Positions 28,516-48,997 of a DNA stretch of 63,660 nucleotides are shown in pieces. The stretch lies in NCBI GenBank assembly GCA_027449865.1, contig DAIDKV010000089.1, positions 1 to 63,660 of the forward strand, written 5' to 3'. Below the pieces are notes generated by a model. That model saw only the letters and a program-made list of their open reading frames with translations. It made no database searches and was not told where the DNA came from. The DNA is from Planctomycetales bacterium (GTDB lineage: Bacteria; Planctomycetota; Planctomycetia; Isosphaerales; Isosphaeraceae). The number at the start of each line of letters is the position of its first letter. The stretch's first letter is position 1. The translations under genes were made by a program, and so were the position numbers.

Positions 28516-29958
28516 TTACGCCCAGTTGGCGAGGAGCCGTTCCAGCGCGGCCCGCCAGCTTGCCAGCGCTTCTTCCGAATCGGGTTCGAGGACGGCCGGC
28601 GGTTCTTCGCCCGAGGTGAATGCCGGGCGAGGTCGGTCGAGTCGAAGGCTTGCGACCGACACTCCTTCGGCCATGATCCGGCGGTCGGAGGTCGCGACGA
28701 TCAGGGCCTGACAGAGGCTCCGCCGCGATCGCGCCAGGCAACGAGCGGCTAGCTGGTCCTCGTTGATCGCCTCGGTGAACGCGGTGCCATGGGCGATCGC
28801 CTCACGGAGGACCATCTCCACCAGCGCCCGCTCGGCGGCCATTGGCTCGACCTCGCCCTGGCGGACGAAGAGGAACTCGAAGACGATCGCCTCGTCGCTC
28901 AGCCACTCGGTGAGCCGGCGCAGCAGTGCCACCAGAAGCCCCAGCGCGAGCACCACTCGCTGACGCGGCAGCTCGATATCCTTGACCCGTGCGAGGGCCA
29001 GGTCGGGGTAGAGGGCGATCGCGTACGTCCGGCGGCGGCGGAGGAACCGGTTCTCGTCGCGTGAGTAATAGAGCAACTCGTCGCGGAGGAACTTGATGTC
29101 GAAAAGGTCGGGACTCTCGTCGGGCTCCATGTACGCGAGCTGCGAATGAAGGAGGCTTTCGATGTTCCCCCGAGTCGAGATCGAGGAGAACCCGCCGACC
29201 GGGTAGGTATCCTCGTCGAGGATGCGGGTGGCGACGTCGTGCCGGCGGACCTGGAGCCTGGGGCGCATTGCGGGGGCGGCGGCCTCGAAGTCGGCCGCGG
29301 CTTGCAGGACCTGTCTCAGTCCGACTCGCTGGCCGAAGGCCGCCAGGGCGGTCCCGTGCTCCAGCTCGAAAACATCCTCCGGCCCGAGAGCGTCGTGCAT
29401 CTCTCGGATCGCTTCGACCCACCGCTCGTAGAGCGCTGGCAGGATCGGAATGGGTCCGTCGTGAACGAGCGATTTCCAGCCATCTGCCAGCAACTCCTCG
29501 GGAGAGACCTCCAGGGTTGACTTCAGCGCGGCGGGATTCAGCAGCACCCCGCCGAGACCGGCGCGTCGGCCAAGCTGGTCCAGGACGAACGCGAGTCCAC
29601 GGTCGCGGTCGCGTCCTCGGTAGCGCGCGAGGGCATCCGAGGCGCGGGCGATCGAGCTGTCGGCGTCGAGCTTGCCGAGGAGGATGTCCTCGTATCGCCT
29701 GGCCAGGCCGGGGGGCCAGCCGGGTACATCGGGCGCCGTTCGGACGTCGGCACGGAACTCATCACTCAGGACAAGGTGTCCGACGTCGGCGACGATCCCG
29801 ACCGGCGGGATCGGCTCGCCGCCGGTCGCGGCTTCGAACGCCCACCGGAGGGCCGGGCCGACCGCTGCCGCCGAGGGCGCCGCGAGTCGCTGGAGCCAGA
29901 GCCCTTGCGACAGGAACCGGCGGGCCTCCGTGGCGTCGTGGATCTCATGGATGCTCAC
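28516..29958 (-). CDS. vWA-like protein without MIDAS, partner of the MoxR ATPase
   Basis: The protein is 480 aa from GTG 29958, which has GAGGAG nine bases upstream; a TTG at 29982 overlapping the MoxR stop is the alternative. Residues ~300-470 alternate strands and helices as a von Willebrand A fold would: TYAIALYPDLALARVKD, a hydrophobic helix (RQRVVLALGLLVALLRRL), IVFEFLFVRQGEV, a second helix and QALIVATSDRRI. The metal-site signature DxSxS is absent (ALYPDLA sits where it would be), so metal binding is unlikely. The first 280 residues are helical and unrecognised. Position directly after MoxR is the classic MoxR-vWA arrangement and is the main support. It is the last gene of the long operon. 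Confidence 0.6.
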   Translation of the reverse strand: MSIHEIHDATEARRFLSQGLWLQRLAAPSAAAVGPALRWAFEAATGGEPIPPVGIVADVGHLVLSDEFRADVRTAPDVPGWPPGLARRYEDILLGKLDADSSIARASDALARYRGRDRDRGLAFVLDQLGRRAGLGGVLLNPAALKSTLEVSPEELLADGWKSLVHDGPIPILPALYERWVEAIREMHDALGPEDVFELEHGTALAAFGQRVGLRQVLQAAADFEAAAPAMRPRLQVRRHDVATRILDEDTYPVGGFSSISTRGNIESLLHSQLAYMEPDESPDLFDIKFLRDELLYYSRDENRFLRRRRTYAIALYPDLALARVKDIELPRQRVVLALGLLVALLRRLTEWLSDEAIVFEFLFVRQGEVEPMAAERALVEMVLREAIAHGTAFTEAINEDQLAARCLARSRRSLCQALIVATSDRRIMAEGVSVASLRLDRPRPAFTSGEEPPAVLEPDSEEALASWRAALERLLANWA

Positions 29959-29978
29959 CGGGCCGGACTCCTCACGAA

Positions 29979-31019
29979 TCAAAGATCGCCGAGCAGAGCC
30001 GGCACCTTCTCGCGGAGGAGCGCCATCTCCTGGTGTGTCTCTCCGAGGTAGGCGAGGAGCCGCAGGTCGTCACGTCCCACGACACCGCCGGAGAACAGCC
30101 AGGCGCGGATGCGGAGCAGCTTGTAGAGCTTCACGAGCTTGCGGTCGCTGACGAAGATCCGATCCTCGCGGACGAGGGTCTTGATCAGTCGCTGGAACTC
30201 GCGGAACTCCTCGGCCGGGAAGAATGCCGCGCGGTCGGCCGAGACGCCCCGACCCTCGTCGTCGTCGCCGTCGGCCCGGGCGCGGGCGAACTGGAGGGTC
30301 AGGTAGCGGTTGGCTCTTAGCAGGTCGTCGAGCGAGCAATGGCCCTCGGCCCAGGGCTTTTGATTCAGGCCCCGGTAAGCCTCGCCGCGGACGCCCGCGT
30401 CGATCAGCTCCTCGAAATGCTCGTCCTGCACCGGCAGGCTCTCGGCTTTGAGCACGAACCGATCCTTCAGCGCGGCCAGTTCGCCCTGTTCGGGGACCTC
30501 GTTGGTCGCGGCGAATAGGACCCGGAGCCGGACGGCCTGCGGGACGCCGTCCTGGTAGAACTTCCGCTCGTTGACGATGGTGAGCAGGATGTTGAGGATC
30601 GCCGAGTTCGACTTGAAGATCTCGTCGAGGAACGCCAGTCGAGCAGTCGGCAGCTTCCCCTGCTCCCGGCGGATGTAGCGGCCCTCGCGGAGCCGGTTGA
30701 TGTCGATCGGGCCGATCACCTCGGAGGGCTCGGTGAATCGGGTGAGCATGTACTCGAAATAATCGTCGTCGGCGAGGCCGAGGGCGTCCTTGAACTTGAG
30801 GACGAGGTCGCTCTTGGCGGTCCCCGGCGGGCCGACCAGCAGCAGCGGCTCCTGGGCCACCGCCGCGACGACCATCAGGTCGATCAGTTCCTGCTTGGCG
30901 ACGAGGAATCGCCCGAGTGAGACGCGGAATCGATTGATCCGCCCGCGCAGGGCCTCGGCCTCGTCTCGGAGATCCTCGTACGCCCAATCCTCGGCGGGCG
31001 TGGTTCTGGCGGTCGCCAT
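29979..31019 (-). CDS. MoxR-family AAA+ ATPase
   Basis: The protein is 346 aa. ATG 31019 lies two bases after the WD40 stop and has AAAGG eight bases upstream; a TTG at 31025 overlapping that stop is also possible. The AAA+ core has Walker A VGPPGTAKSDL, the MoxR insert before Walker B (LTRFTEPSEVIGPIDINRL), Walker B ARLAFLDEIFKSNSA, sensor 1 RVLFAATNEVPEQ and an arginine-rich sensor 2 region. This is the RavA/MoxR branch, which acts as a chaperone-like remodeler together with vWA-domain proteins. In this locus it would power assembly or triggering of the ternary system that includes the vWA-like, propeller and FtsH-like proteins. Confidence 0.92.
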   Translation of the reverse strand: MATARTTPAEDWAYEDLRDEAEALRGRINRFRVSLGRFLVAKQELIDLMVVAAVAQEPLLLVGPPGTAKSDLVLKFKDALGLADDDYFEYMLTRFTEPSEVIGPIDINRLREGRYIRREQGKLPTARLAFLDEIFKSNSAILNILLTIVNERKFYQDGVPQAVRLRVLFAATNEVPEQGELAALKDRFVLKAESLPVQDEHFEELIDAGVRGEAYRGLNQKPWAEGHCSLDDLLRANRYLTLQFARARADGDDDEGRGVSADRAAFFPAEEFREFQRLIKTLVREDRIFVSDRKLVKLYKLLRIRAWLFSGGVVGRDDLRLLAYLGETHQEMALLREKVPALLGDL

Positions 31020-31021
31020 GT

Positions 31022-32059
31022 TCAAGGCCTTTCATCCAGATCAAGGATCGTAACCTCACCGCTCTCTCCGCCGACGGCGACGGTCATGCCGTCGGGAGCG
31101 AGGGCCATGCAGTGGAGCGGCCCGATGCCGGGATCGAGGCAAGACCGCTCGAAGGTCTCGCGGGCGTCCCAGATCCGGAGCGTCCCGTCGAGTGAGGCGG
31201 TAACAATCGTCCGGCCATCGGGGGAGAATGCCAGGGATTGCACGGCATCGGTGTGGCCGCGGATCTGCCGGCGCCTCGAGACGACCGGGAGCTTCTCGTC
31301 GACGTGCCGATAGTCCCAGAGGTCGACGACGCTCCCGATGGCCGCGGCCAGGGTCGTACCGTCGGGGGAGAAGGCGATCCGCCGCACCGGGTCGTCGCCG
31401 CCGGCCCTAACTTCCACCATGCGCGATCGCCGGAGATGCCGATCACGCTCGACCCGGTCCTCCCCGCGGAGGTGTTTCCAGGGGATGGCGTAAGGCCAGA
31501 GCACGATCATGCCGCGTGAGGTGCCCAGGGCGATGGTGCGGCCGTCGGAGGAGTAGGTCGCCGTGAGCGTGTCATGGTCCCTCAGGTCCAGCGAGTCGAG
31601 GCGCGTAGGGGGATTGTGCTGTTGTCGGCCCCTCCTGAACGCCGTGACCTGCCAGAGGATCGCCCGTGCCACCGAGCCGGAGACGGCGCCAACGCTCACA
31701 AGATACTGCCCGTCGGGAGAGAAGGCGATCGACGAGACTCCAGGGCCCCACATATTTCCGAGGAGAGGGTCGCCCGTGTCTCTGGCGAGCGCCCCGGCCA
31801 GAGGCCCGTCCCGCAGGCCATCGCGATCGCAGACGATCACCATCGGACGGCCCGTCGCGAGCGCCAGGAGCCGCCCGTCGGGGCTGAACATCAGGTCTTC
31901 GATCACCGGGAAATCGTGCCGGATGTCCGCTCGCCGATCGCCCGTCACCGCATCCCAGACGAAGAGTGCCTGGTCGTCTCCGCCGGAGACGAGTATTGCG
32001 CCATCGGGGGAGTAACCGAGAGCCCGGACGAAACGGCCATGCGCCGTCCACTGGATCAT
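31022..32059 (-). CDS. WD40 beta-propeller protein
   Basis: The protein is 345 aa. ATG 32059 overlaps the stop of the large upstream gene (ATGA) and follows GGAGGGGCC. The longer frame to 32269 lies inside that upstream gene and is rejected. At least six WD40-type blades are visible: GYSPDGAILVSGGDDQALFV, LMFSPDGRLLALATGRP, IAFSPDGQYLVSVGAVSG, TYSSDGRTIALGTSRGMI, IAFSPDGTTLAAAIGSVVDL and LAFSPDGRTIVTASLDGTLR. A last blade closes at MALAPDGMTVAVGGESGEV. It is cytoplasmic, without a signal peptide. In the MoxR-vWA-beta-propeller class of conflict systems, propellers of this kind are thought to sense or scaffold. Confidence 0.88.
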   Translation of the reverse strand: MIQWTAHGRFVRALGYSPDGAILVSGGDDQALFVWDAVTGDRRADIRHDFPVIEDLMFSPDGRLLALATGRPMVIVCDRDGLRDGPLAGALARDTGDPLLGNMWGPGVSSIAFSPDGQYLVSVGAVSGSVARAILWQVTAFRRGRQQHNPPTRLDSLDLRDHDTLTATYSSDGRTIALGTSRGMIVLWPYAIPWKHLRGEDRVERDRHLRRSRMVEVRAGGDDPVRRIAFSPDGTTLAAAIGSVVDLWDYRHVDEKLPVVSRRRQIRGHTDAVQSLAFSPDGRTIVTASLDGTLRIWDARETFERSCLDPGIGPLHCMALAPDGMTVAVGGESGEVTILDLDERP

Positions 32060-35000
32060 GGCCCCTCCCCCAGCGCCGCCCGCACTTCGCGGTGGAGGCG
32101 TCGGCGGACGAAATACTCGTCGTCTTCCAGCCACCGCCGGCCCGACTCGCCGAGGGTGAAATCGTCGCTGGCGAGGGCCAGAACGACCGCCTCGACCAGG
32201 GCGAGCCGAGCGGCCGAGTAGTGCGAGACAACTGTGTACGTGTCGTGAATCCGCTCCAGTTGGCTGCAAAGCTCGGCGAGCCGGGGCAGTGCTTCGGCCG
32301 GAGGAGCCTGGCCGAGCGTCCCGGCGTAGGCGACGGCCAGCGCGGTCTGGTCGATCGGGGGAAGGTCGCCGCGCAGGAGCAGCGCGCGGGCCTCGTCCAG
32401 GACCGGCCGGGCGCGGTCGGGCTGGCCGAAGTGGTACCAGCCCGCGGCGACGTGCAGCAGGAGCCGGAGCGACCTCGACCAGCCGATCGCCTCGGGCCCG
32501 GTCCGCTCGCCGGCGCCGGCAAGAGCACCGTCCGGGCCGACTCCCCTGCCCTTCAGGATCAGGTCGGCCATCCGGCCGAGTAGCCGGTCGATCTCGTCGC
32601 GGAGGCCCAGCTTGCGCAGGCCGCGGAACGCCTGGCCCAGCAGCGGCTCCAGGTCCGACGCCGAGCGTTCGTCGGCCTCGGCCAGCAGGTCCTCGAATCG
32701 GCCGACGTATTCCCGGACGGGCCCGAGCTGGTCGAAATGCGCCGCCACGTGGATCGCCCGATCCAGAAGGTCGGCCTGTCGAGGAAGCCGAGAACCGAGC
32801 CGGTCAACGGCCGGCAAAACCCGGGCGAAGAGCTCGCGGGCGAACGGCTCGCCGAGCCGGAACGAGACCTCGAGCGACGTGCGCAGAACGTCGGCCACGA
32901 CGATCGGTGTACGCTCACCCTCCGGACGGGCCGCGAGGAGACGGGTCATCCGTCGGGCCAGTTCGTCGCGGTCGACCAGGTCGACGACCGTCGTCAGCTC
33001 GCGAGAAACCACGTCGAGATTCCCGTGCCAGTGCCGGTAAGGGTCGATCTTCTCGTGAGGTTCAAGAATTCTCGATTGCTTGCGCAGTCGATCGATCTTG
33101 TACCGGTCGGTCTTCGCCTGCTTCTGCTCCGACGAAGTGCCCGACCGCCCCATCGTGTCGAGCTGTTCCATCAGTTCGACGGGAAGCGGGCCGGCGGCGC
33201 CCTTTCCCTCGCTCGCCTGCCAGACCCGATACTCGAACGCCTTGCCGAGCCACGAGACCACCGGGTCGAGCTGCGGCAGCGCATCGAGGCCCGAGGCCAG
33301 GAGCCCGACGCCCGCCTCGCCATCACCCAGCCGCGCCATCCCGTAGGCGAAGATCAAATCGGCCAGCGCGCCGGTGTGGGGACCGGTCCAGGAGCCCGTC
33401 CTGAGCCAGGCCCGGGCGGGCTCGTGCAGACGGATCAAATGATCGCGCGCCAGCCCAGCCCGGTCGCCACTCCCGCCGCCGGCGAAGCGAAGGAAATACG
33501 GCAAATCGAGGTCGCGACTCAACCCCTGCGCGTGCAGTCGTTCGAGAACCCGATCGCGCGCCCGGGCCAGCGTTAGCACGTCGCCCCGCGCCAACTTCGA
33601 GAGCGACGACCAGGCGATCCAGGTGATTCGCACCGGGACTGTGGCTTCATGCTGCACGAGGAAGTGCTGTACCCGGTCGAGCACGGCCCGGAGCCCGGCC
33701 GACCAGGCGGTCCGGTCGGGGGCGTGGGCGGCCAGCGCCAGGTTCGCGGTCAGCGTGCGGAGGGCGGCGACCGTCGGCTTTGTCTCGGCCAGGAGGCGGC
33801 CCGCGGCGTTGGCGTCGTCGAGCCTGAGTCCCGACGCCTTCGCCTCGGCTCGCGCCCAGGCTTCAAGCGCTTCGACGGGCGGCTCGACCTCTTCCCAGAA
33901 GGCATTGGCCCAGCAGACCGAGGCGTCGCCGACGCGGTCGAGTGCGACGTTGAGCGAGGCCATCTCGCGCCAGAGTTCCCGGCGCGGTTCGGCGTCGAGT
34001 GGGTCTTCCCTTGCCAGGAAATGCTTCTCGGCCTCGCCGAGCCGGCGCGCGGCCTCGCTCGGCTCGATCACCTCCACCTCGGGCAGGGCCTCGACCTGGC
34101 GCGCACGTCGAGGGCGTGAAGGCGACCGAGGGACCGCCGGCGCGACCGGTGCCGCCTCGGGCACGTCCTCCTCGTCCGGGCTTCGACGGCGCCCGCGTTT
34201 CGGGCCGCCCTTCGGGTCGTCTTGATCGTCTCCGCAGACGAACGGCTCGAAGTCGAACCGGGCCGAGCGGACCCAGGCTTCGAGCGGCCGGTGCTCGCGG
34301 TCGAGGACGTAATCAACCCACTGATCGAGTGGCCGGAACGACTCGTCGGGCAGGCTCTCTGGCACAATCCCGCCCCCTGGCGCAGGGGCGAGCCAGGTGA
34401 TCCGCGACGGGTCGGAGGCGAGTAGCCGGGCGACGGCGTCGCGACGCAGCGGAGGGTGCAGCCGCGTCCCGATCGGCAGGAACAGGTTCGGCAGGCGGAG
34501 ATACGATCGATACCCGACGCCGTCGAGCACGACCACCGGCGGTGCCTGTTTTGAGGGTCGCGTCCGGACCACCACGGTCGGCTCGCCCTCATCAATGCCC
34601 TCGGCCACAGCAAATGAGAGGCGAGCGACCAGCCGGCCGTCAGCGTGCCGCACCAACTCGTCGAGTTGTTCGACGGCGCGATCGCGGACGACCCACAATT
34701 CGGCCGCCTCGTTCGCCGCCCCGCGGGCCAGCCGGAGCGGGACGGTGATCCTTGCGGGATGGGCAACGTCGCGATGACGCACCTCGGCGGCGGGCAGTCG
34801 AAATTCGAGCGACTCGTAGACGTCGCGGAACGGACCATCGGCGAGGAAATCCCACCGCCGAGGGGGACCCATCAGCACGACCTGGCCCGGCGGCGGCCGG
34901 AGCCGGTCGAGCATCGGGTGGGTGTAGCCGGCCTCCACCAGCAGCCGGGGCGACCTTTCGACATACGCCCGAGGGCCGCCGAGGCGCTCGTCGCGGTCCA

Positions 35001-35469
35001 GGGCCCGGAGCATCGCATAATACGGCGGCCCGACCACTCGCAAAAGAGCGCGGGCCTCGCTGCCTTCGGCGTCGGCGTTTGCGAGCCATCGGAGGCCCTG
35101 GCGGTCGTTCCCCAGGCGGAGGATCTCGGCGACCAGCTCGGGGACCAGCCCGCCGGGCACCTCGAAGACGACGGGTGTCATCGGACCTGGGATTCCGCCC
35201 GAGGGGTCGCGCGTCAGTGGTAGGATCTGCGCCCAGCAGGCGACGGCCTCGCCCGGCCCATCATTTTCCGCGGAGGTCCGGCACTCGCGCACGCCCAGGT
35301 TGCGCAGCGCGGACTTCGCCGGCCGCGGCAGTGCCTTCGCCGGCCGGATCCGCACCGATCCGTCCGGCTCGAAGACGGCGACCGCCGGCGCCTCGGCGAT
35401 CTCGGGCGGGACGGCCGCCGAGGTGAGGGCCAGTCGGAGGGTGTCGAGGCTGGGGAACAGCAGGATCAT
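32056..35469 (-). CDS. Large (1137 aa) ternary-system component with N-terminal unknown domain and helical-repeat C-terminus
   Basis: ATG 35469 overlaps the previous stop (ATGA), and its own stop overlaps the WD40 start, so it is tightly coupled. Residues ~1-420 form an alpha/beta domain of unknown type (MILLFPSLDTLRLALTSAAV; LLRVVGPPYYAMLRALDRDE; PPGQVVLMGPPRRWDFLADG). A basic/acidic linker follows (~425-480, KGGPKRGRRRSPDEED). From ~480 to the end the chain is helical, with TPR-like regularity (SVCWANAFWEEVEPPVEAL; LADLIFAYGMARLGDGEAGV). No catalytic motif was found. I associate such proteins with unknown 'X' components of FtsH/MoxR/vWA systems, but I cannot assign an exact family from memory. 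It could be the sensor or scaffold. Confidence 0.75.
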   Translation of the reverse strand: MILLFPSLDTLRLALTSAAVPPEIAEAPAVAVFEPDGSVRIRPAKALPRPAKSALRNLGVRECRTSAENDGPGEAVACWAQILPLTRDPSGGIPGPMTPVVFEVPGGLVPELVAEILRLGNDRQGLRWLANADAEGSEARALLRVVGPPYYAMLRALDRDERLGGPRAYVERSPRLLVEAGYTHPMLDRLRPPPGQVVLMGPPRRWDFLADGPFRDVYESLEFRLPAAEVRHRDVAHPARITVPLRLARGAANEAAELWVVRDRAVEQLDELVRHADGRLVARLSFAVAEGIDEGEPTVVVRTRPSKQAPPVVVLDGVGYRSYLRLPNLFLPIGTRLHPPLRRDAVARLLASDPSRITWLAPAPGGGIVPESLPDESFRPLDQWVDYVLDREHRPLEAWVRSARFDFEPFVCGDDQDDPKGGPKRGRRRSPDEEDVPEAAPVAPAVPRSPSRPRRARQVEALPEVEVIEPSEAARRLGEAEKHFLAREDPLDAEPRRELWREMASLNVALDRVGDASVCWANAFWEEVEPPVEALEAWARAEAKASGLRLDDANAAGRLLAETKPTVAALRTLTANLALAAHAPDRTAWSAGLRAVLDRVQHFLVQHEATVPVRITWIAWSSLSKLARGDVLTLARARDRVLERLHAQGLSRDLDLPYFLRFAGGGSGDRAGLARDHLIRLHEPARAWLRTGSWTGPHTGALADLIFAYGMARLGDGEAGVGLLASGLDALPQLDPVVSWLGKAFEYRVWQASEGKGAAGPLPVELMEQLDTMGRSGTSSEQKQAKTDRYKIDRLRKQSRILEPHEKIDPYRHWHGNLDVVSRELTTVVDLVDRDELARRMTRLLAARPEGERTPIVVADVLRTSLEVSFRLGEPFARELFARVLPAVDRLGSRLPRQADLLDRAIHVAAHFDQLGPVREYVGRFEDLLAEADERSASDLEPLLGQAFRGLRKLGLRDEIDRLLGRMADLILKGRGVGPDGALAGAGERTGPEAIGWSRSLRLLLHVAAGWYHFGQPDRARPVLDEARALLLRGDLPPIDQTALAVAYAGTLGQAPPAEALPRLAELCSQLERIHDTYTVVSHYSAARLALVEAVVLALASDDFTLGESGRRWLEDDEYFVRRRLHREVRAALGEGP

Positions 35470-35738
35470 CCACGCCCCTCGGCCTGGGGCCGTCGCTCTT
35501 CGATTTCCGGGCGAGAGGCTGGGGCGGCCGGTTCGGCGACCTCCTGCTCGCGCTCGACCACAATTTGACCCAGCTCCTCCGCCTTGATCAGACCGCCCTC
35601 GATCAGCTTCTGCACCAACGCCCGGTGCTGTTGCTCGTGCTCGTGCGGCAGGGCGTCGCTCTCGGATTGGAGGTCGATGATGATGTCTTTCTTGCCGGTC
35701 GCCGGGTCGGTCCGGAGCCGGATCGTCATCTCGGCCAT
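35466..35738 (-). CDS. Small ternary-system protein (90 aa), unknown
   Basis: ATG 35738 is chosen because AGGGGACAACCATC precedes it and because upstream codons encode a run of Phe unlike the remainder. The first half, MTIRLRTDPATGKKDIIIDL, is a beta hairpin like those at the ends of the 190-aa protein encoded at 38056-38628. It is followed by a helix rich in Gln/Glu/His (PHEHEQQHRALVQKLIEGG) and an acidic Pro/Ala tail. It is translationally coupled to the large gene downstream. No function is recognised. Confidence 0.7.
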   Translation of the reverse strand: MAEMTIRLRTDPATGKKDIIIDLQSESDALPHEHEQQHRALVQKLIEGGLIKAEELGQIVVEREQEVAEPAAPASRPEIEERRPQAEGRG

Positions 35739-35767
35739 GATGGTTGTCCCCTGAAAGTATCCCTGAG

Positions 35768-35932: not shown

Positions 35933-35939
35933 TCGACGC

Positions 35940-41854: not shown

Positions 41855-41883
41855 ACTATACCAAAGCTCATCAGGTGTTCCAA
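41855..41883 (-). promoter_or_regulatory. Candidate sigma70-type promoter inside the operon
   Basis: On the minus strand TTGGAA (41883-41878) and TATAGT (41860-41855) are separated by exactly 17 bases, overlapping the end of the STM4011-type gene. The predicted start near 41848 gives a leader of about 75 bases to ATG 41771. It would let the FtsH/MoxR half be transcribed apart from the STM401x half. Confidence 0.55.
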
Positions 41884-42767
41884 GCAAATTCCGGACTTTC
41901 TCGCACCCAGATCGCCCCGGCCGGAATACGCTCGAGGAGCCCTTCTTCGAAGACCGGGTAGAGACGCAGGTGGTCGAGGTGGACGTAGCCGATGTGGCAC
42001 GAGCAGGTGGCGTTGGTGCAGGGCCTTTCGATCAGGGCGGCCTCGAAGCCGGGCTCGTAGAGGTTCGCGATCGGGTCGCGGATGAAGTGGCAGCGGCGAA
42101 TGGTTCCATCGCCATCCACCGAGATCACCGATCGGCCGGCTCGACAGGCGCGGCCGAAGCTTGCGTGCCGTTGGGTGTTGATGGGATAGAGCGGGTCGAT
42201 GGCTTCGAAGCGATGGGACTCGTCGGCGGTCAGGTCGCCAAGGCCCGGCTTGTAGGCGTTGATCCAGAGGTAGACGTGCCGCGGAAGCTCGCGTCGGAGG
42301 GTCTCGGCCTCAGCCAGTTGCTCCTTCAAACCAACTACCCCAACGCTAAATCGAACGCCCCGGCGGTCGAGCTCTCGGCATCGGGCGAGGAAGTCGTCTC
42401 GCCGGATCTGCGAGGGGTGGTACGTCGCCCAAAGCGCGAGCCGCGATTTGTCGCAGCGCTCGACCCATTCCAGACCGCAGGATAGATTGGTTTGAATGGC
42501 GGCTCGATCGACGGGTGGCAGGTTTGTCAGCCGGATCAGCGCCTCGCGATACCATCGGCGGGTGAGCGCCTCGCCCCAGGGCGTGAACAGGACCGAGATC
42601 CGGTCGCCGTTACGGCCTGCGACCCAGTCGACGAAGCGATTCAGCGCGAGGCGATCGTGATCCAGTTCGGCGACGGTCTCCCGATGCTTGGCGAACGGGC
42701 AGTAATCGCAGCCGTAGTTGCAGCTTGAAAGCGGGCCTCGGTAGAGGATCGAGAGGTTCAGCGCCAC
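41871..42767 (-). CDS. STM4011 family radical SAM protein
   Basis: The protein is 298 aa. GTG 42767 has GGAGG seven bases upstream and overlaps the STM4012-type gene by ten bases; the much longer upstream frame lies inside that gene. The cluster motif is SSCNYGCDYCPFAKH (CX3CX2C), followed by FTPWGEAL in the place of the usual GGE, and later QTNLSC, ATYHPSQ and WINAYKPG. Additional C-terminal cysteines (CRAG...RRCHF; CTNATCSCH) suggest an auxiliary Fe-S cluster of SPASM/Twitch style. It belongs to the conserved STM4011-STM4015 cassette first numbered in Salmonella. The reaction is unknown; modification of a peptide or small molecule is the general expectation. Confidence 0.88.
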   Translation of the reverse strand: MALNLSILYRGPLSSCNYGCDYCPFAKHRETVAELDHDRLALNRFVDWVAGRNGDRISVLFTPWGEALTRRWYREALIRLTNLPPVDRAAIQTNLSCGLEWVERCDKSRLALWATYHPSQIRRDDFLARCRELDRRGVRFSVGVVGLKEQLAEAETLRRELPRHVYLWINAYKPGLGDLTADESHRFEAIDPLYPINTQRHASFGRACRAGRSVISVDGDGTIRRCHFIRDPIANLYEPGFEAALIERPCTNATCSCHIGYVHLDHLRLYPVFEEGLLERIPAGAIWVRESPEFAWNT

Positions 42768-44092
42768 TCGTAGTCCTCCATCGCGCGTCGGACCGCGTCG
42801 GAATAGAGCCAGGGGCCAATGACGTCGGATCGCTCGATTCCGGCGGCGGTGAGAGCCAGCACATCGCCCTGACGCTCGGCCAGCGCGAGGTCGATCAACG
42901 TCGACAGCTCGGGCAGGTCTTCCCCCAGGTCTGTCTCGAACCGGCGGGCGTAGTGCCCCAGTGAGAGCCCCGAACACTGAAGCAGCGACTGGATGACGAA
43001 CCTTCGGCGCTGGTCTTCACCGTCGAGGTGTCGGCCGTAGCTGGCCACACCGAACGATTCGACCTCGCGCGCTGAGTACGCCTCGATCAACGCGCGGACT
43101 CCATGAGCCCCCACAGCGTACTCGGTGCTGTAGTGAAGCGCGTGGGTGTACGACCTCGCCCCGCAGCCCAGGCCGACCATGCCGTCGTCCTGACAGCAGT
43201 AGACGATGCCGGACTCCGATGGTCCTGCACGTCGGAACATGCGCATCGAGACCTGCTCGTACCCGAGGCCGACGAGCAGGTCACGAGCCTCTCGATAGCA
43301 GGCGAGACGGAGGTCATCCCACGAGCGGCCTGATCGGCCCAGACCGGTCAGCGGGCGGACATAGAGCGGATAGAAGTACAGCTCTTCGGGCTCATAACGC
43401 AGGGCCTCGCGGACCGAGCGAAGCCAGCTCTCGACCGTCTGACCCGGCAGGCCGTAGATCAGGTCGATGTTCAGGGTTCGAGGGCCGGCCTCTCGGATCG
43501 ATCTCAGGGCGTGATGAACCTCGGCCGACTCTTGCGGCCGGTAGACCGCGGCGGCCTCGGCCTCGTCGAACGACTCGACCCCGATACTGATCCGGTCGAC
43601 CCCTCGGCCGACCAGCATCGACAGCTTCTCGACGTCGACCGTCCCGGGCGAGACCTCGACCGACGTCGGGACCTTTGCGGCATCGAGCCCCATGATCCCC
43701 TCGGCCACTTCGAAGAGGGTCTCCAGACCGGAGTGGCTCAAATAGGTCGGGGTGCCTCCACCGATCGCGAACCGCCCGAAAGTGACCTCGCCGATCGCCT
43801 CGCGAACCGTTCCCGCCTCACGACGCAACGCTTCCAGGTAGCGTGCGACCGTCGCCTCGTCTCCACCAGCTCGCGTGAAAAGATTGCAGAACCCGCATCG
43901 CATTCCACAGAACGGGACGTGGATGTAGAGGAATGGCGCGTAATGGCACTCCATGGTCCAGATGGAAGCGAGCGATACCGAAGTATCAAGAGGTCTATAT
44001 GATGTTTTGTGTGGATATGAATAAGCGTATGATTGATACGGCGAGCCGTCGAGCGGCGATTTTTTGGCGGTTCTGGCGGCGATTCCGCTCAC
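42758..44092 (-). CDS. STM4012 family radical SAM (HemN-like) protein
   Basis: The protein is 444 aa. GTG 44092 overlaps the stop of the STM4013-type gene and has GGAG eight bases upstream. The family-specific N-terminus is present (DGSPYQSYAYSYPHKTSYRP). The HemN-type cluster motif is YIHVPFCGMRCGFCNLF (CX3CX2C), followed by IGGGTPTYLS, SVEVSPGTVD, RISIGVESFD, NIDLIYGLPGQT and YFYPLYVRPLTGLG. It has the HemN/coproporphyrinogen-dehydrogenase fold but is a separate subfamily that always travels with STM4011 and STM4013. It may transfer methyl or adenosyl groups, or act as an oxidase; the substrate is unknown. Confidence 0.92.
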   Translation of the reverse strand: MSGIAARTAKKSPLDGSPYQSYAYSYPHKTSYRPLDTSVSLASIWTMECHYAPFLYIHVPFCGMRCGFCNLFTRAGGDEATVARYLEALRREAGTVREAIGEVTFGRFAIGGGTPTYLSHSGLETLFEVAEGIMGLDAAKVPTSVEVSPGTVDVEKLSMLVGRGVDRISIGVESFDEAEAAAVYRPQESAEVHHALRSIREAGPRTLNIDLIYGLPGQTVESWLRSVREALRYEPEELYFYPLYVRPLTGLGRSGRSWDDLRLACYREARDLLVGLGYEQVSMRMFRRAGPSESGIVYCCQDDGMVGLGCGARSYTHALHYSTEYAVGAHGVRALIEAYSAREVESFGVASYGRHLDGEDQRRRFVIQSLLQCSGLSLGHYARRFETDLGEDLPELSTLIDLALAERQGDVLALTAAGIERSDVIGPWLYSDAVRRAMEDYEWR

Positions 44093-44898
44093 TTCGACGA
44101 CTCCGGCAAGAGGAACTCGGCGTAGGGGACGGTCCAGACGACCTCGTGGGCGAGGCGGTGGCCCTGGTAGCCGTCCTCGCCGTAGGCTGTGCCATGATCG
44201 GAGCAGGCGATGACCAAGCTCGGACCCCGGCGCTGCAAGGCGGCGAACAGCCGGGGCAACTGGCGGTCGACATACGCCAGTGCCTCGGCGTGCGACTCAA
44301 TCGTGTCGTGGGTTGCGCCTTCCAGGTAGAACCGGTTCGGCTGGTGGACGGCCGAGATGTTCAGGAACAGGAAGACGCGCCGGTCGCGCGGCAGGCCGCT
44401 CATAATTCGATCGATCAGGGCGACCTGGTTCTCGGTCGATCGCGGGTCGGTCACGCCCAGCTCGGGGCTCCAGTGGCTTTCGGCGAAGAGATTCGGCAGC
44501 GTCGACCCGAGCGGCGTGAGCTTGTTGAAGAAGCCGACCCCGCCGACGCAGACGGTGTGATACCCGAGCCAGGCCAGGCCGGAGACGATCTCCGGCGCGT
44601 CGAGAACGCAAGTCGTCTCGGTGGTTGTCTCGCTCCCGGGGAACGCGACAGCGAACGGCCGGGGATGCCGGCCGGGTCCGATCGGCGTGGGCAGGAAGCC
44701 GGCGAAGAAGGCGTGATGCGCGGCGTAGGTGAAGCTCCCGGGCGAGTGCCGCTCCTCCCAGACCCCACCCGGCAGGACGGCCGCGAAGTTCGGAGTCTGG
44801 CCCCGCGCCAGGGCGTCGCGGGCGACGTCGAATCGCAGGGTGTCGATCGTGATGAGGACGATGTCGTGCGTGCCGATCATCGACCGGACGTCGGTCAT
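44089..44898 (-). CDS. STM4013/SEN3800 family hydrolase (alkaline phosphatase/sulfatase superfamily)
   Basis: The protein is 269 aa. ATG 44898 overlaps the HAD gene stop (ATGA) after GGGGG-type spacing. Metal-site motifs of the superfamily are VLITIDTLRFDVA near the start and VIACSDHGTAYGEDGYQGH near the end; HQPNRFY lies between. The chain is shorter than true sulfatases (about 270 versus 450-550 residues) and has no signal peptide, so it acts in the cytoplasm on a phospho- or sulfo-ester or on the cassette's product. It belongs to the STM401x set by sequence and position. Confidence 0.9.
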   Translation of the reverse strand: MTDVRSMIGTHDIVLITIDTLRFDVARDALARGQTPNFAAVLPGGVWEERHSPGSFTYAAHHAFFAGFLPTPIGPGRHPRPFAVAFPGSETTTETTCVLDAPEIVSGLAWLGYHTVCVGGVGFFNKLTPLGSTLPNLFAESHWSPELGVTDPRSTENQVALIDRIMSGLPRDRRVFLFLNISAVHQPNRFYLEGATHDTIESHAEALAYVDRQLPRLFAALQRRGPSLVIACSDHGTAYGEDGYQGHRLAHEVVWTVPYAEFLLPESSK

Positions 44899-45551
44899 GG
44901 CAGCACCCCCGGGAGGTCGAGCACGCGGTCGATCCGGAACTCGGGTCGCGGCCAGCTTTCATGGTAGTCAGCACCGACCGCACAGGTCCGGAGCCCGGCC
45001 CGTTGCCCGCCCTGGATATCTTCGTGGGGGTGATTGCCCACGATCAGGGCCTCGTCGGCCGCGACCCCCGCCCATTCGAGGGCCCGGCGGAAGATTGCGG
45101 GGTCCGGCTTGCGGACGCCCATCTCACCCGAAAGGAAGACGCGGCCCACCGCGCCCTTCAAACCGGCGCGCTCGATCTTGGCCCGCTGGACTCGTCGCGA
45201 TCCGTTGGAGACGATCGCCGTTTTGTATCGGACGGAGAGCTCGCCGAGCATCTGCACGACGGCCGGATCGGGCTCGATGCACCCGGGCAGCCGCGCGGCG
45301 AGTTCGGCCGCGATCGCGAGTTGCGAGAGACCGACGTCTGGGTGGCAATCGGTGACAACCCAGGCCACAAGGTGTCGTTCCAGGTGGCGGCCGTCGCACC
45401 CCTCATACGTCAGGTCTCGGTGCAGCCTGGCCCGCGCCTCCGGCGAAAGGACTCGCAGGCGGCTTTCCATGAACCCTTCGACGCATCGTAGCCAGGGACC
45501 CCTCAGGTCGATCAGCGTGCCGTCGAGGTCGAAGAAGAGGGCGCGGATCAT
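44895..45551 (-). CDS. HAD-superfamily phosphatase
   Basis: The protein is 218 aa. ATG 45551 overlaps the STM4014-type stop and follows GGAGGGTCCGC. HAD motifs: I, ALFFDLDGTLIDL; II, AIVSNGSRRVQRAKIE; III, GVRKPDPAIF (Lys); IV, ALIVGNHPHEDIQGGQRAG. The helical cap lies between motifs I and II, as in class-I-cap HADs of the phosphoglycolate phosphatase/YjjG kind. In motif IV the usual GD is GN with a following ED, which is still a plausible Mg site. It is inserted within the STM401x gene order and probably removes phosphate from a cassette intermediate; that is inferred from position. Confidence 0.9.
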   Translation of the reverse strand: MIRALFFDLDGTLIDLRGPWLRCVEGFMESRLRVLSPEARARLHRDLTYEGCDGRHLERHLVAWVVTDCHPDVGLSQLAIAAELAARLPGCIEPDPAVVQMLGELSVRYKTAIVSNGSRRVQRAKIERAGLKGAVGRVFLSGEMGVRKPDPAIFRRALEWAGVAADEALIVGNHPHEDIQGGQRAGLRTCAVGADYHESWPRPEFRIDRVLDLPGVLP

Positions 45552-46762
45552 GCGGACCCTCCCCCGGCCGCGACGCCCAGCGCGGCCAGTTCGGCGGCGT
45601 AGGTGTCCAGGCCGTCGAAGAGGACGCCCGGCAAGAGGTCGCCGAACGCGTTGATTTCCAGGACCGCGTGCCGGCGGAAGCCCGGCGAGACGACCACATC
45701 AACGCCCGCGTAAAGACTCCCGGGCACGATGCCCGCGGCCCGCTCGCAGGATCGCATCAGCGCCTCCCACGCGGCGTCCCCCATCCGGGCGCGGACGAGG
45801 TCCGCGTCGGCGCGCCGATTTTTTAGGTGGAGGTTTGTCATCGGGCCACGGCCAACCCGGGCGATGGCGTGCCTCGCCCGACCCCCGATCACGACCACCC
45901 GCAGGTCGAACGGCCCGCCGGCCAGGCTCTCCTTCGGCACCCATCGCTCGGCTTGCGCCCGCTCTCGACAGAGCGCATCGACCACCTCGGCGATCCGCGG
46001 CTCGTCGGTCAGGCGGCGGATGGCCCTCGAGTTGTAGAGCTTCAAACCGGAGGCGGATTCGACTGCCTCGACGGTTGTGGTCGCCTGCACGCGTCGGCCG
46101 TCGGTCTCGAACGCGACGACCCCGGAGGCCGACGATCCGTGTGCCAGCTTCACGAAGACCCGGTTCATCCCGGCTCGATCCATTCGATCGCGGAGATCGT
46201 CATAATCGTGCGGTGTCCCCAGCCCGGTCGGGCACGGAACGTTCTGGGCCTCAAAAAGGGCGTGACAAGTCGGCTTGTCGAACATGATCGAGATGTCGTC
46301 GGGCCGGTTCATCACGATATGCGGCGGGCAGGCTTCCCGATCCCGATCGAGCTGGCGGAGCAGTCCGCGGAAGCCGAGATACCACTGTCTCGGATGCAGA
46401 ATCTGCCCGCGGTCGAATTCGAGCTGCAACGCCTCGGCACGTCCGATCCGAGACGCCCAGGCAGACTCGTCGTCCTCGTCGGCCCCGGCGGCGATCAGGG
46501 CGCGTTCAACGTCGAAGTCGCGATCGGGCGACTCGAACCGGAGGATGGTCCCCTCGGTCACGAACGCTTCGAGCGCGACCCGGCCGGCGAGGAGATCCGC
46601 ATAAGGAACGACCACCGCCGGCGCGAGCCCGAGCGCGGCCATCGACTCCTGAAAGAGCGAGACGCGACGGCCGCCGGGATTGCCGACGATCACGACCCTC
46701 GGGCCCGCCTCGCTTCGGAAATCTCCCCTAACCCGCGGGGTGCCCGTGGTTATCTCGATCAT
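45548..46762 (-). CDS. STM4014 family ATP-grasp-like protein
   Basis: The protein is 404 aa from ATG 46762, 20 bases after the first LRR gene. The N-terminal segment RVVIVGNPGGRRVSLFQESM is a pre-ATP-grasp Rossmann-like strand. The grasp part shows FDKPTCHALFEAQNVPCPTG, NRVFVKLAHGSSASGVVAF (ATP-binding Lys/Ser loop), FDLRVVVIGGRARHAIARVG, NLHLKNRRADADLV and DVVVSPGFRRHAVLEINAFG (the E-x-N metal site). It therefore resembles carboxylate-amine/thiol ligases that join carboxylates to amines. In this cassette it may ligate an amino acid or modify a peptide end. Assigned by motif order and its neighbours STM4011-13 and STM4015. Confidence 0.87.
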   Translation of the reverse strand: MIEITTGTPRVRGDFRSEAGPRVVIVGNPGGRRVSLFQESMAALGLAPAVVVPYADLLAGRVALEAFVTEGTILRFESPDRDFDVERALIAAGADEDDESAWASRIGRAEALQLEFDRGQILHPRQWYLGFRGLLRQLDRDREACPPHIVMNRPDDISIMFDKPTCHALFEAQNVPCPTGLGTPHDYDDLRDRMDRAGMNRVFVKLAHGSSASGVVAFETDGRRVQATTTVEAVESASGLKLYNSRAIRRLTDEPRIAEVVDALCRERAQAERWVPKESLAGGPFDLRVVVIGGRARHAIARVGRGPMTNLHLKNRRADADLVRARMGDAAWEALMRSCERAAGIVPGSLYAGVDVVVSPGFRRHAVLEINAFGDLLPGVLFDGLDTYAAELAALGVAAGGGSA

Positions 46763-46782
46763 TGTCCTGCCCCGAGCTTGCC

Positions 46783-47760
46783 CTATTCCGAGACGGCGAT
46801 ATACCGACCGTCGTCGTCGGACTCGTCTCGGGCGTCCTCGGCGTTCAGGTCGACGCCGGTGTCCTTGAGGCCGTCGATGACTTCGGCCGAGACGTAGTGG
46901 TGATGGATATCGAGCCGCTTCAGGCCCGAGAGATTGCCGCCGGAGATCAGGGCGACGGCGCCCTCGTCGCCCAGGTTGCCGAGTGAGAGGTCAAGCGTCT
47001 CGATCCGGCGGAGGATCGGGGCATCGGCGAGCGCGGTGGCGAGGGCGTCGGCCCACTCGCAGTCGCGCAGGCCGAGGTACTTGAGCCGAGGGAACGCCGT
47101 CCCGGAGAGGATCGGCGCCAGGTCATCGATCGTCGCGTCGCCTCCGTAGTACCCGCTGCCGAGCCAGAGTTCCAGGTGCTCCAGGTTCGGGAGTTCGGCG
47201 GCGGAAACGGAGCGGACGATCGATTTCGGCAGCCCGCCCGACTCGAAAATCAGCGTCTTGAGGCCGCCGTGGTGGATCTCCCCGCGCGCTCGGAGTTGTT
47301 CCGCGACCTCCGACGGCGTGGTGGCGCTCACGCCTTCCACATCCGCTCCCCCGCGCACGCGGAGATGTTCCAGGTGCGGATAGGCCTCAAGGATCGGCGT
47401 GACGTCGGTCTGGCGGATCCAGGAGATCTCGCACTCGTCGTAGGTGATATCACCGAAGAACAGGGCTTTCAGACCGGTCAGGCGATCGCTGCCGGCGGCC
47501 AGAGCGGCGATGATCTCCGCGGCCCCCGACTCGTTTTCGATCGGGTTCCAGTTGCCAATCACCAGCGCCTCAACCTGCCCGCAGGCCGGGTCTTCAAGCA
47601 TCCGGTCGAGCAGGGCGTTCATGGTCGCCCCGTCCTCGGCAGCGTCGTAAGTCAGGGCGAGCCGATAAGCGGTCTTGGCCGGATCGGTGAGGCCCTCGTC
47701 GGGGTCGAAATCCCGAACCGGTCGCCCCGCGAACTCCTCGATGTGCTCCGAGATCGCCAT
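46783..47760 (-). CDS. STM4015 family leucine-rich-repeat protein, copy A
   Basis: The protein is 325 aa; ATG 47760 follows GGAG at seven bases. The N-terminus MAISEHIEEFAGRPVRDFDP is conserved in the second copy. The body has RNase-inhibitor-type leucine-rich repeats: LKALFFGDITYDECEISWIR, LEHLRVRGGADVEGV, LEHLELWLGSGYYGGDATID, LKYLGLRDCEWADALATAL, IETLDLSLGNLGDEGAVALI and LKRLDIHHHYVSAEVIDGL. It has no signal peptide. The STM4015 family always accompanies STM4011-STM4014; the LRR may bind a partner or be the substrate of the radical SAM enzymes. The acidic C-terminus (DARDESDDDGRYIAVSE) is shared with copy B. Confidence 0.88.
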   Translation of the reverse strand: MAISEHIEEFAGRPVRDFDPDEGLTDPAKTAYRLALTYDAAEDGATMNALLDRMLEDPACGQVEALVIGNWNPIENESGAAEIIAALAAGSDRLTGLKALFFGDITYDECEISWIRQTDVTPILEAYPHLEHLRVRGGADVEGVSATTPSEVAEQLRARGEIHHGGLKTLIFESGGLPKSIVRSVSAAELPNLEHLELWLGSGYYGGDATIDDLAPILSGTAFPRLKYLGLRDCEWADALATALADAPILRRIETLDLSLGNLGDEGAVALISGGNLSGLKRLDIHHHYVSAEVIDGLKDTGVDLNAEDARDESDDDGRYIAVSE

Positions 47761-47824
47761 GCGATGTCTCCACTCCCCAGGCCCACGACCGAGACGCCGA
47801 CCGAAGACGCCCGAACCGGACCGG

Positions 47825-47854
47825 ACTCTACCAGCGCCCGATGCCTTCGTGCAA
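47825..47854 (-). promoter_or_regulatory. Promoter-like block conserved between the two STM4015 copies (copy A)
   Basis: On the minus strand TTGCAC (47854-47849) and TAGAGT (47830-47825) are 18 bases apart. The intervening GAAGGCATCGGGCG is nearly identical in the second copy (49058-49087) although the flanks diverge, which suggests function. Confidence 0.45.
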
Positions 47855-47968
47855 TTGTCCGATACCTGAACTCACGCAATCGATCAACTAGCGCCCCGCT
47901 CCGCAAGCCTGCTTCTCGCCCGGTTCGATCGAACGAGCCCCTCCGGCAGAGATAGGGAACGGACGGTC

Positions 47969-48012
47969 ACTCGCGACGTGGCCGTGGTCGTCTCGATTTT
48001 CGTCCTGCCCCG
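47969..48012 (-). repeat. Relic of the STM4014 gene start
   Basis: Read on the minus strand, CGGGGCAGGAC..ATCGAGA..ACCACGG.CAC..CGCG.GT matches the ribosome-binding site and first codons of the intact STM4014-type gene (46735-46775), except that its ATG is replaced. It marks the downstream edge of the duplicated unit. Confidence 0.65.
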
Positions 48013-48031
48013 ACGCCGATCCCGCGCCGGT

Positions 48032-48997
48032 TCATTCCGCGACGGCGATGTACCGTTCGTCGTCGTCGGTCAACTCCCGCCGCTCATCCGCAATGAGTTC
48101 GACGCCGGTGTCCTTCAGGCCGTCGATGACCTCGTCTGAGACGTAGTGGTGGTGGATGTCGAGCCGCTTCAGGCCCGAGAGGTTCCCGCCGGAGATCAGG
48201 GCGACGGCACCCTCGTCGCCCAGGTTTCCGAGCGAGAGGTCGAGCGTCTCGATCCGGCGGAGGATGGGAGCGTCTGCCAGCGCGGTGGCGACGGCGTCGG
48301 CCTGCTCGGAGTCGCGCAGGCCGAGATATTTGAGCCGGGGGAAGGCTGCGCCGGAGAGGATGGGCGCCAGGTCGTCGATTGTCGCGTCGCCGCCGTAGTT
48401 CTCGCTTCCGAGCCAGAGTTCCAGGTGCTCCAGGTTCGGAAAATCGGCGGAGCCGACGGAGCGGACGACCGACCCCGGTAATCCGCCCGACTCGATGATG
48501 AGCGTCTTGAGGCTCTCGTGGTGGACCTTACCGAGCGCCAGTCCATCCGCCCCGCGGAGGCGGAGATGCTCCAGGCGCGGATAGGCTTCGAGGAGTGGTG
48601 TGACGTCCGCCTGGCGGATCCAGGAGATCTCGCATTCCTCGAAGGTGATGTCGCCGAGGAACAGGGCCTTCAGGGCGGGCAGGCGATCGCGCGCGGCAAT
48701 CAGGGCGTTGGCGATCTGCTGAGAGCCCAGGTCGTGGTCGATCTGGTCCCAGGCGCCGATGACGATCGCGACGACCTCTCGGCTTGCTGGGTCGTCGAGC
48801 AACCGGCTCAGGGGGCCGGCGAAGGTCGCTCCGCCCTGCGCTCTGCCGAAGAACCGGCCAAGAATCGCGGTGAAGTTCGACGCGCCCTGCATCGTCAGCC
48901 GGTAAGCCGTGCCGGTCGGATCGGTCACGCCCTCGTCTGGGTCGAAATCCCGGACGGGAAGGCCCGCGAACTCCTCGACGTGTTCCGAGATCGACAT
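48032..48997 (-). CDS. STM4015 family leucine-rich-repeat protein, copy B
   Basis: The protein is 321 aa; ATG 48997 follows GGGGGG at eight bases (a GTG at 49006 is an alternative). It is the paralogue of copy A and nearly identical in the C-terminal LRR region (IETLDLSLGNLGDEGAVALI and the next repeats), also at nucleotide level. Differences gather in residues ~20-60, where copy B has an extra segment (MQGASNFTAILGRFFGRAQG), and in ~110-150, where copy A carries a longer loop (EGVSATTPSEVAEQLRARGE). So the ligand-facing variable part evolves while the repeats are conserved, possibly by gene conversion. It is the first gene of the long minus-strand locus. Confidence 0.87.
   Translation of the reverse strand: MSISEHVEEFAGLPVRDFDPDEGVTDPTGTAYRLTMQGASNFTAILGRFFGRAQGGATFAGPLSRLLDDPASREVVAIVIGAWDQIDHDLGSQQIANALIAARDRLPALKALFLGDITFEECEISWIRQADVTPLLEAYPRLEHLRLRGADGLALGKVHHESLKTLIIESGGLPGSVVRSVGSADFPNLEHLELWLGSENYGGDATIDDLAPILSGAAFPRLKYLGLRDSEQADAVATALADAPILRRIETLDLSLGNLGDEGAVALISGGNLSGLKRLDIHHHYVSDEVIDGLKDTGVELIADERRELTDDDERYIAVAE

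What the first reader, a model, noticed from the sequence alone, without database searches (positions are those of the whole stretch)
28516..48997. 20-kb composite operon joining an FtsH-MoxR-vWA-WD40 ternary system to a complete STM4011-4015 radical SAM cassette
Nineteen minus-strand genes are packed with ATGA/GTGA overlaps. One half has a MoxR ATPase, a vWA-like protein, a propeller, a soluble FtsH-like protease and several unknown proteins. The other has two radical SAM enzymes, a phosphatase-superfamily hydrolase, a HAD phosphatase, an ATP-grasp-like protein and two LRR proteins. MoxR-vWA ternary systems are known from comparative genomics as candidate immunity systems of multicellular bacteria, and STM401x is a known but uncharacterised cassette; I am not aware of the two being described as one system. 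A modified product or LRR sensor could feed a MoxR/FtsH proteolytic switch.
Basis: partly seen in the sequence, partly recalled or inferred. Interest (0 to 1): 0.88.

Follow-up and report, generated by a model that had tools for sequence, protein, structure and literature searches.

The report
FtsH ternary system plus STM401x cassette
Two uncharacterised bacterial gene modules, a predicted immunity-type protein-remodelling machine (the FtsH ternary system) and a radical-enzyme cassette also found in Salmonella (STM4011-4015), sit side by side here and again, in different layouts, in myxobacteria and another planctomycete, so they probably work together, which gives the Salmonella cassette its first functional lead.

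Summary
In detail: 19 minus-strand genes at 28516-49006. Genes 1-12 are a 'simple' FtsH ternary system (Kaur et al. 2020, PMC7159879). It has an inactive vWA with helical N-terminus, MoxR, WD40, fvmX7, fvmX3-analog, FtsH, fvmX5, three lineage-specific small genes, fvmX6 and its own radical SAM enzyme. Genes 13-19 are a complete STM4011-4015 cassette (plus a HAD and a second LRR); all five families score above NCBIfam cut-offs. So there are three radical SAM enzymes, not two.

The junction is not private to this genome. STM401x genes lie beside FtsH ternary genes in Myxococcus, Kofleriaceae, other Myxococcota lineages and another planctomycete, in several layouts. In several the LRR gene starts 24-92 nt after vWA; in one, STM4011 overlaps the ternary radical SAM gene (GTGA). 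The neighbours outside the block are not conserved. In 193 Myxococcota genomes the two co-occur 39 times (odds ratio 17). I found no published mention of the link.

Both halves also occur alone, most planctomycete ternary systems lack the cassette, and a promoter-like site separates them here. The likely reading is a recruited partner module, not one obligate operon. The biochemical mechanism is untested.

The parts
28516..29982 (-). ivWA protein (helical N-terminus + inactive vWA), 480-488 aa
   Evidence: Pfam ivWA 8e-43, ivWA-helical_N 5e-32
29979..31019 (-). MoxR AAA+ ATPase, P-loop GPPGTAKS
   Evidence: Pfam bpMoxR 1e-58; closest solved relative RavA; GXXXTAKS P-loop seen
31022..32059 (-). 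stand-alone WD40 propeller, 345 aa
   Evidence: Pfam WD40; start chosen
32056..35469 (-). fvmX7 protein, 1137 aa
   Evidence: Pfam fvmX7 1e-95
35466..35738 (-). fvmX3-analog small protein
   Evidence: Pfam fvmX3-analog 6e-33; alignment A8
35940..38045 (-). soluble FtsH-like protease: degenerate N-terminal part without a P-loop, active AAA (GPPGTGKT), M41 HEAGH
   Evidence: Pfam AAA 2e-40, Peptidase_M41 2e-33; alignments
38056..38628 (-). fvmX5
   Evidence: Pfam 1e-50; predicted fold pLDDT 89, no PDB match
38625..39155 (-). accessory gene, 176 aa, similar to the next gene, no family
   Evidence: among the related loci only in L041
39152..39655 (-). accessory gene, 167 aa, similar to the previous gene, no family
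   Evidence: among the related loci only in L041
39660..40043 (-). DUF6915 accessory gene
   Evidence: Pfam 1e-37; among the related loci only in L041
40046..41119 (-). fvmX6, all-helical
   Evidence: Pfam 4e-92; predicted fold pLDDT 91, no PDB match
41121..41771 (-). ternary-system radical SAM enzyme (NrdG/PflA-like, CxxxCxxC)
   Evidence: Pfam Fer4_12 6e-32, NrdG 6e-28 below cut-off; paired with fvmX6 in most of the related loci in which fvmX6 was found
41855..41883 (-). promoter-like site TTGGAA-17-TATAGT (extended TG) at the junction
   Evidence: -10 and surroundings conserved in L041
41871..42767 (-). STM4011 radical SAM, CxxxCxxC plus five conserved C-terminal Cys
   Evidence: NF038073 398 bits, cut-off 200; alignment A3
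42758..44092 (-). STM4012 HemN/HemW-like radical SAM
   Evidence: NF006067 579 bits, cut-off 380
44089..44898 (-). STM4013 alkaline-phosphatase-superfamily hydrolase
   Evidence: NF038075 413 bits, cut-off 250; predicted metal-site residues invariant
44895..45551 (-). HAD phosphatase
   Evidence: Pfam HAD_2 3e-18
45548..46762 (-). STM4014 ATP-grasp
   Evidence: NF038074 398 bits, cut-off 175; E369/N371 conserved; weakly LysX/RimK-like
46783..47760 (-). STM4015-family LRR protein b
   Evidence: NF038076 329 bits, cut-off 275
48032..49006 (-). STM4015-family LRR protein a (GTG 49006 or ATG 48997)
   Evidence: NF038076 345 bits, cut-off 275

Best explanation
The region is a 'simple'-type FtsH ternary system to which a complete STM4011-4015 cassette has been coupled as a functional partner. 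SHOWN by sequence: both modules are complete, their catalytic residues are intact, and the two recur next to each other in unrelated lineages in different layouts. INFERRED mechanism: the STM enzymes (two radical SAM proteins, an ATP-grasp ligase, an alkaline-phosphatase-type hydrolase and a HAD phosphatase) install a modification on, or make a small product carried by, the STM4015 LRR proteins. The LRR proteins act as the recognition or effector element. The MoxR-vWA pair holds and remodels the complex (with fvmX5/X6/X7, WD40 and the system's own radical SAM), and the soluble FtsH protease unfolds and cleaves the released component, so a response fires only above a threshold. I put about 0.8 on functional coupling of the modules and about 0.3 on the LRR-modification mechanism.
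For: Family membership above curated cut-offs. STM401x next to ternary genes in several layouts: upstream same strand (window; L075/L128), downstream same strand with 4011-4013-HAD convergent (Myxococcus, Kofleriaceae L125, L124, L126), all downstream on one strand (L127), divergent from rSAM-fvmX6 (L135). LRR starts 24-92 nt after the vWA stop in L124, L126, L133, L134. STM4011 stop overlaps the rSAM start as GTGA in L128. In 193 Myxococcota genomes fvmX5 is in 52, STM4014 in 60, both in 39 (odds ratio 17, p 7e-15, not phylogeny-corrected); 26 of 26 same-contig pairs have STM4014 9.5-19 kb downstream on the same strand. Genes outside the block are not shared between deep lineages. Given both present, 7 of 20 lineages are adjacent, chance p below 2e-8. 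FtsH-tree labels are scattered (10 changes). Catalytic residues conserved.
Against: Both modules occur alone: STM cassettes without a ternary system in planctomycetes and 21 Myxococcota genomes, and STM cassettes with no ternary genes alongside in Streptomyces, Deinococcus, Paenibacillus, Salmonella; ternary systems without the cassette nearby in most planctomycetes, and without STM4014 in 13 of 52 Myxococcota genomes. A promoter-like site splits the halves here. The nearest relative (L041) carries a deletion fusing STM4014 to STM4011, so the cassette may be dispensable, or this is an assembly error. No substrate, product or phenotype is known. Myxococcaceae synteny is partly one inherited event.
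Confidence: 0.55

Rival explanations
1. Two independent accessory modules that share an integration hotspot or defence-type island; adjacency reflects where such genes accumulate, not a joint biochemical function.
For: Both modules are patchy and each occurs alone. In Myxococcus the distance between STM4014 and STM4012 varies from about 2 to 25 kb, so other cargo inserts here. A promoter-like site separates the halves in the window.
Against: The LRR gene is within 24-92 nt of vWA in four loci, and STM4011 overlaps rSAM in L128. The same two modules pair in both phyla, while the flanking genes are not shared.
Confidence: 0.28
2. The STM401x cassette is a metabolic or cofactor pathway (for example a tetrapyrrole-like or amino-acyl-carrier product; HemW-like radical SAM, LysX/RimK-like ATP-grasp), and the ternary system is a MoxR/FtsH maturation chaperone for its enzymes, not an immunity system.
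For: STM4012 is HemN/HemW-like. STM4014 is weakly LysX/RimK-like. MoxR-vWA pairs such as NorQ-NorD are established metalloenzyme-maturation chaperones (PMC9976466, abstract). The ternary MoxR's only PDB relatives are RavA.
Against: The STM cassette occurs in many taxa without MoxR or FtsH nearby, so its enzymes do not seem to need this chaperone; and the ternary system usually occurs without the cassette next to it.
Confidence: 0.15
3. Chance adjacency confined to this genome and its near relative.
For: Most planctomycete ternary loci with 10-kb flanks show no STM genes.
Against: Adjacency recurs in several Myxococcota lineages and in G394; chance p below 2e-8.
Confidence: 0.02

Closest known systems
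FtsH ternary system, simple type (Kaur, Burroughs, Iyer, Aravind 2020, PMC7159879)
   Same: Helical-N + inactive vWA, MoxR with GXXXTAKS P-loop, FtsH with degenerate N-terminal part, adjacent radical SAM gene; Pfam families built for this system (fvmX3-analog, X5, X6, X7) all match.
   Different: Adds a complete STM4011-4015 cassette, a stand-alone WD40 protein and three lineage-specific genes (DUF6915, two similar small proteins). The paper's main text names only NEFF1 and one radical SAM as effectors of this type and mentions no ATP-grasp, HemN-like protein or STM401x.
STM4011-4015 cassette (NCBIfam NF038073, NF006067, NF038075, NF038074, NF038076; Salmonella and many other taxa)
   Same: Same genes in the same order (4015-4014-[HAD]-4013-4012-4011), all above curated cut-offs.
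   Different: Two LRR copies (also seen in Streptomyces and Deinococcus) and adjacency to a ternary system; no function is known for the cassette.
Peptide-processing systems linked to ternary systems (Kaur et al. 2020)
   Same: An independent radical-SAM-containing module coupled to a MoxR-vWA ternary system.
   Different: No zincin metallopeptidase was found and no FxSxx-type peptide gene was recognised; the module here is STM401x with ATP-grasp, phosphatases and LRR.
beta-propeller ternary systems (Kaur subsystem 4)
   Same: Same MoxR subfamily (bpMoxR) and a WD40 protein.
   Different: The vWA protein carries no propeller, and FtsH is present.

Membership tests
FtsH ternary system (simple type) | vWA domain fused to a large all-helical N-terminal domain | tested here: met
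   ivWA-helical_N and ivWA above cut-off in 28516-29982
FtsH ternary system (simple type) | MoxR partner with GXXXTAKS P-loop | tested here: met
   bpMoxR 198 bits; sequence GPPGTAKS
FtsH ternary system (simple type) | FtsH with inactive N-terminal and active C-terminal AAA | tested here: inconclusive
   Active AAA and HEAGH M41 present, N-terminal 280 residues lack a P-loop; the fold of the N-terminal part was not tested
FtsH ternary system (simple type) | Adjacent stand-alone radical SAM gene | tested here: met
   41121-41771, next to fvmX6 as in related loci
FtsH ternary system (simple type) | NEFF1 effector | not tested
   No model named NEFF1 was at hand
FtsH ternary system (complex type) | Propeller fused to vWA plus Ubl/E1/E2/JAB genes | tested here: not met
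   None of these domains among the 20 proteins scanned
STM4011-4015 cassette | All five families above NCBIfam cut-offs in the conserved order | tested here: met
   398/200, 579/380, 413/250, 398/175, 329 and 345/275 bits; order as
Known anti-phage defence system (PADLOC) | Match to a catalogued defence protein across the system | tested here: not met
   Of ten proteins scanned, only generic AAA similarity (IetA, TRIP13) of FtsH and a weak partial hit of STM4012
Biological conflict / immunity function | Protection against phage or other invader | not testable with these tools
   Needs phage challenge

The most novel reading that the evidence does not exclude
STM4011-4015 is a protein-modification system whose substrate is its own LRR protein. 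Wherever it occurs, including Salmonella, it makes a modified LRR sensor or effector; in myxobacteria and some planctomycetes that sensor is wired into a MoxR/FtsH proteolytic switch, defining a new class of modification-gated bacterial immunity.
Probability: 0.15. Interest if true: 0.9.

Novelty: new variant of a known kind. Interest (0 to 1): 0.6.

Why it matters
The STM401x cassette has been known only by locus tag, yet occurs from Salmonella to Streptomyces; its repeated pairing with a predicted immunity-type chaperone/protease system is the first functional lead I could find for it. It also adds a multi-enzyme module to the FtsH ternary systems, whose effector arm in the simple type was described as essentially one radical SAM and NEFF1. 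Myxococcus, a genetic model with the block in one place, makes both modules testable with ordinary knockouts.

Tried and rejected
(1) PADLOC scan: no defence system matched. (2) STM4012 and STM4013 trees to date the linkage: deep branches unresolved; linked copies are not one clade, so the number of recruitments is undecided. (3) AlphaFold of fvmX6 and fvmX5: confident folds but no PDB match below E 0.001, so no mechanism from structure. (4) Idea that fvmX5 is DUF1257-like and fvmX3-analog DUF2997-like (Ycf46 module): profile comparisons not significant; left as a note. (5) STM4014 against PDB: only weak LysX/RimK and biotin-carboxylase-type matches. (6) A Deinococcus vWA gene beside an STM cassette is an ordinary VWA/PPC protein, not ivWA. 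(7) G428 was not counted as linked: its second fvmX5 is 24 kb from STM4012 but no FtsH was found beside it. (8) Literature: no paper in the library joins the two modules; one of these searches returned nothing at all and is uninformative. The supplementary data of Kaur et al. could not be read.
Full report
WHAT IS THERE. The window holds 19 consecutive minus-strand genes from 49006 down to 28516. Upstream lie ordinary planctomycete genes on the other strand (DUF1501 at 49322-50644, PSCyt2/PSD1 at 50730-53003), so the block starts at a divergent intergenic region; downstream is a gene with a weak cytochrome P460-like match. Nine of 18 junctions overlap. The three gaps over 20 nt are LRR-a/LRR-b (271), FtsH/fvmX3-analog (201) and STM4011/radical SAM (99).

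THE TERNARY HALF (28516-41771). Pfam assigns ivWA-helical_N + ivWA, bpMoxR, WD40, fvmX7, fvmX3-analog, AAA + Peptidase_M41, fvmX5, DUF6915, fvmX6 and a Fer4_12 radical SAM domain. These include the families built for the FtsH ternary systems of Kaur et al. 2020 (PMC7159879). The described 'simple' type has vWA fused to a helical domain, an adjacent radical SAM gene, a double-AAA FtsH and MoxR with GXXXTAKS. The window matches: MoxR reads GPPGTAKS; FtsH has GPPGTGKT, DELDS and HEAGH in the second half and no P-loop in the first 280 residues. The two similar 176/167-aa genes and DUF6915 occur, among the loci examined, only here and in the near relative L041.

THE STM401x HALF (41871-49006). NCBIfam names STM4011, 4012, 4013, 4014 and two STM4015 proteins, all above curated cut-offs, with a HAD phosphatase between 4014 and 4013. 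The order matches Methylobacterium, Streptomyces, Deinococcus, Paenibacillus and Salmonella cassettes. Residues consistent with activity are conserved: CxxxCxxC and five further cysteines in STM4011, the ATP-grasp E-x-N in STM4014, and the likely metal-site residues in STM4013; the family-level reading of these residues is from general knowledge. Library searches found only two passing mentions of these locus tags, in gene lists.

IS THE JOIN MORE THAN CHANCE? The first part is true: complete STM cassettes without a ternary system, and ternary systems without STM genes nearby, are common in Planctomycetota. The second part is false. A scan for the ternary FtsH gave 80 loci, and STM genes flank it repeatedly. 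Genome searches of 50 of those genomes found STM4012 and STM4014 above cut-off in 24, several on the same contig as fvmX5.

DIFFERENT LAYOUTS. (i) Window and L075/L128: 4013-4012-4011 then rSAM-fvmX6, same strand; in L128 the STM4011 stop and rSAM start overlap as GTGA. L128 lacks 4014 at the site; its copy is elsewhere in that genome. (ii) Myxococcus-type, Kofleriaceae L125, L124, L126...MoxR-vWA-LRR-4014 on one strand, meeting 4011-4012 (in most with 4013 and HAD) from the other; LRR starts 24-92 nt after the vWA stop in L124, L126, L133, L134 but 666 nt after it in L125. (iii) L127: vWA, 4014, LRR, 4013, 4012, 4011 on one strand. (iv) L135, a second planctomycete: 4013-4012 divergent from rSAM-fvmX6 in a genome whose fvmX5 and FtsH sit on other contigs. 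A variation on (ii) is Myxococcus genomes with extra DNA between 4014 and 4012 (2-25 kb).

STATISTICS AND THEIR LIMITS. In 193 Myxococcota genomes fvmX5 is in 52, STM4014 in 60, both in 39 (odds ratio 17, p 7e-15); all 26 same-contig pairs have STM4014 9.5-19 kb downstream on the same strand. These counts are not corrected for phylogeny, and Myxococcaceae seem to dominate. Three facts limit that worry. Genes just outside the block are shared only between two Myxococcus species, apart from a few weak partial matches, and not between deeper lineages, so general synteny has decayed while the block has not. The layouts differ. Counting the Myxococcus clade once, 7 of 20 lineages that have both modules have them adjacent, against about 1% expected (p below 2e-8), although that list was assembled by me and some contigs are short. 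In Planctomycetota co-occurrence is weaker (3 of 11 versus 8 of 381; p 0.02 without the window's genome). On the FtsH tree the linked state needs 10 changes, though rows with truncated contigs were scored as unlinked; STM4012 and STM4013 trees are too poorly resolved to count recruitments.

ONE OPERON? Not shown. At the join is the best promoter-like site of the region, TTGGAA-17-TATAGT with extended TG (4 such sites found, 1.3 expected). The -10 and its surroundings are unchanged in L041 while the bases just after it differ and the alternative GTG start is lost, which favours the ATG at 41771 and a short leader. The ternary half can probably be transcribed alone here; in L128 it looks translationally coupled.

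HOW IT PROBABLY WORKS. Shown: intact ligase, radical SAM, phosphatase, AAA and protease motifs, and conserved neighbourhood. Inferred from family knowledge: MoxR-vWA pairs remodel bound proteins (RavA-ViaA, NorQ-NorD; PMC9976466); soluble FtsH degrades what is released; LRR proteins bind other macromolecules; ATP-grasp plus radical SAM modules commonly modify peptides or proteins. In Myxococcus-type loci the LRR and ATP-grasp genes are the ones placed directly behind vWA. The simplest reading is that the LRR protein is the point of contact, modified by the STM enzymes and handled by the ternary machine. The immunity role of the ternary system is itself a prediction.

COMPARISON AND NOVELTY. 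Kaur et al. describe independent modules (peptide processing, DGRs, DUF397-type) coupled to ternary systems; in the main text STM401x, ATP-grasp and HemN are absent. This is therefore a new variant of a known kind: an FtsH ternary system with a known but uncharacterised cassette as partner. The supplementary gene lists of that paper could not be read, so prior depiction there is not excluded.

Noticed in passing
L041:3560-3760 versus window 42675-45566: In the 96%-identical relative (a MAG), about 2.9 kb is missing so that STM4014 runs in frame into STM4011; 4012, 4013 and HAD are absent. Real decay of the cassette or an assembly error.
   Followed up: partly
L150:60-680 and 1917-3290; L146: A relative of the ternary radical SAM enzyme (42% identity) sits with a Ycf46-like AAA ATPase and a DUF1257-type gene; L146 has AAA-DUF1257 with a small protein that looks DUF2997-like. 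The FtsH ternary core may be an elaboration of this module, but fvmX5/DUF1257 and fvmX3-analog/DUF2997 profile comparisons were not significant.
   Followed up: partly
G394 (L135, L046), L045, L052: In some planctomycetes ternary genes appear scattered over several contigs or sites (FtsH without fvmX5, fvmX5 alone), yet rSAM-fvmX6 stays beside STM4013-4012 in G394.
   Followed up: partly
L121/L122 and other Myxococcus loci: The stretch between STM4014 and STM4012 varies from about 2 to 25 kb, suggesting insertion of variable cargo between the convergent transcripts.
   Followed up: no
L141:3804-4826, L142:2168-3235, L143:10012-11013: Genes annotated DUF6745, each beside a small hypothetical gene, flank STM cassettes in Methylobacterium, Streptomyces and Deinococcus; a possible further cassette member.
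   Followed up: no
window 38625-40043: Two similar 176/167-aa proteins without any family plus DUF6915 are inserted between fvmX6 and fvmX5 only in this lineage; other loci carry inserts of up to about 2 kb at the same place, a possible variable-effector slot.
   Followed up: no
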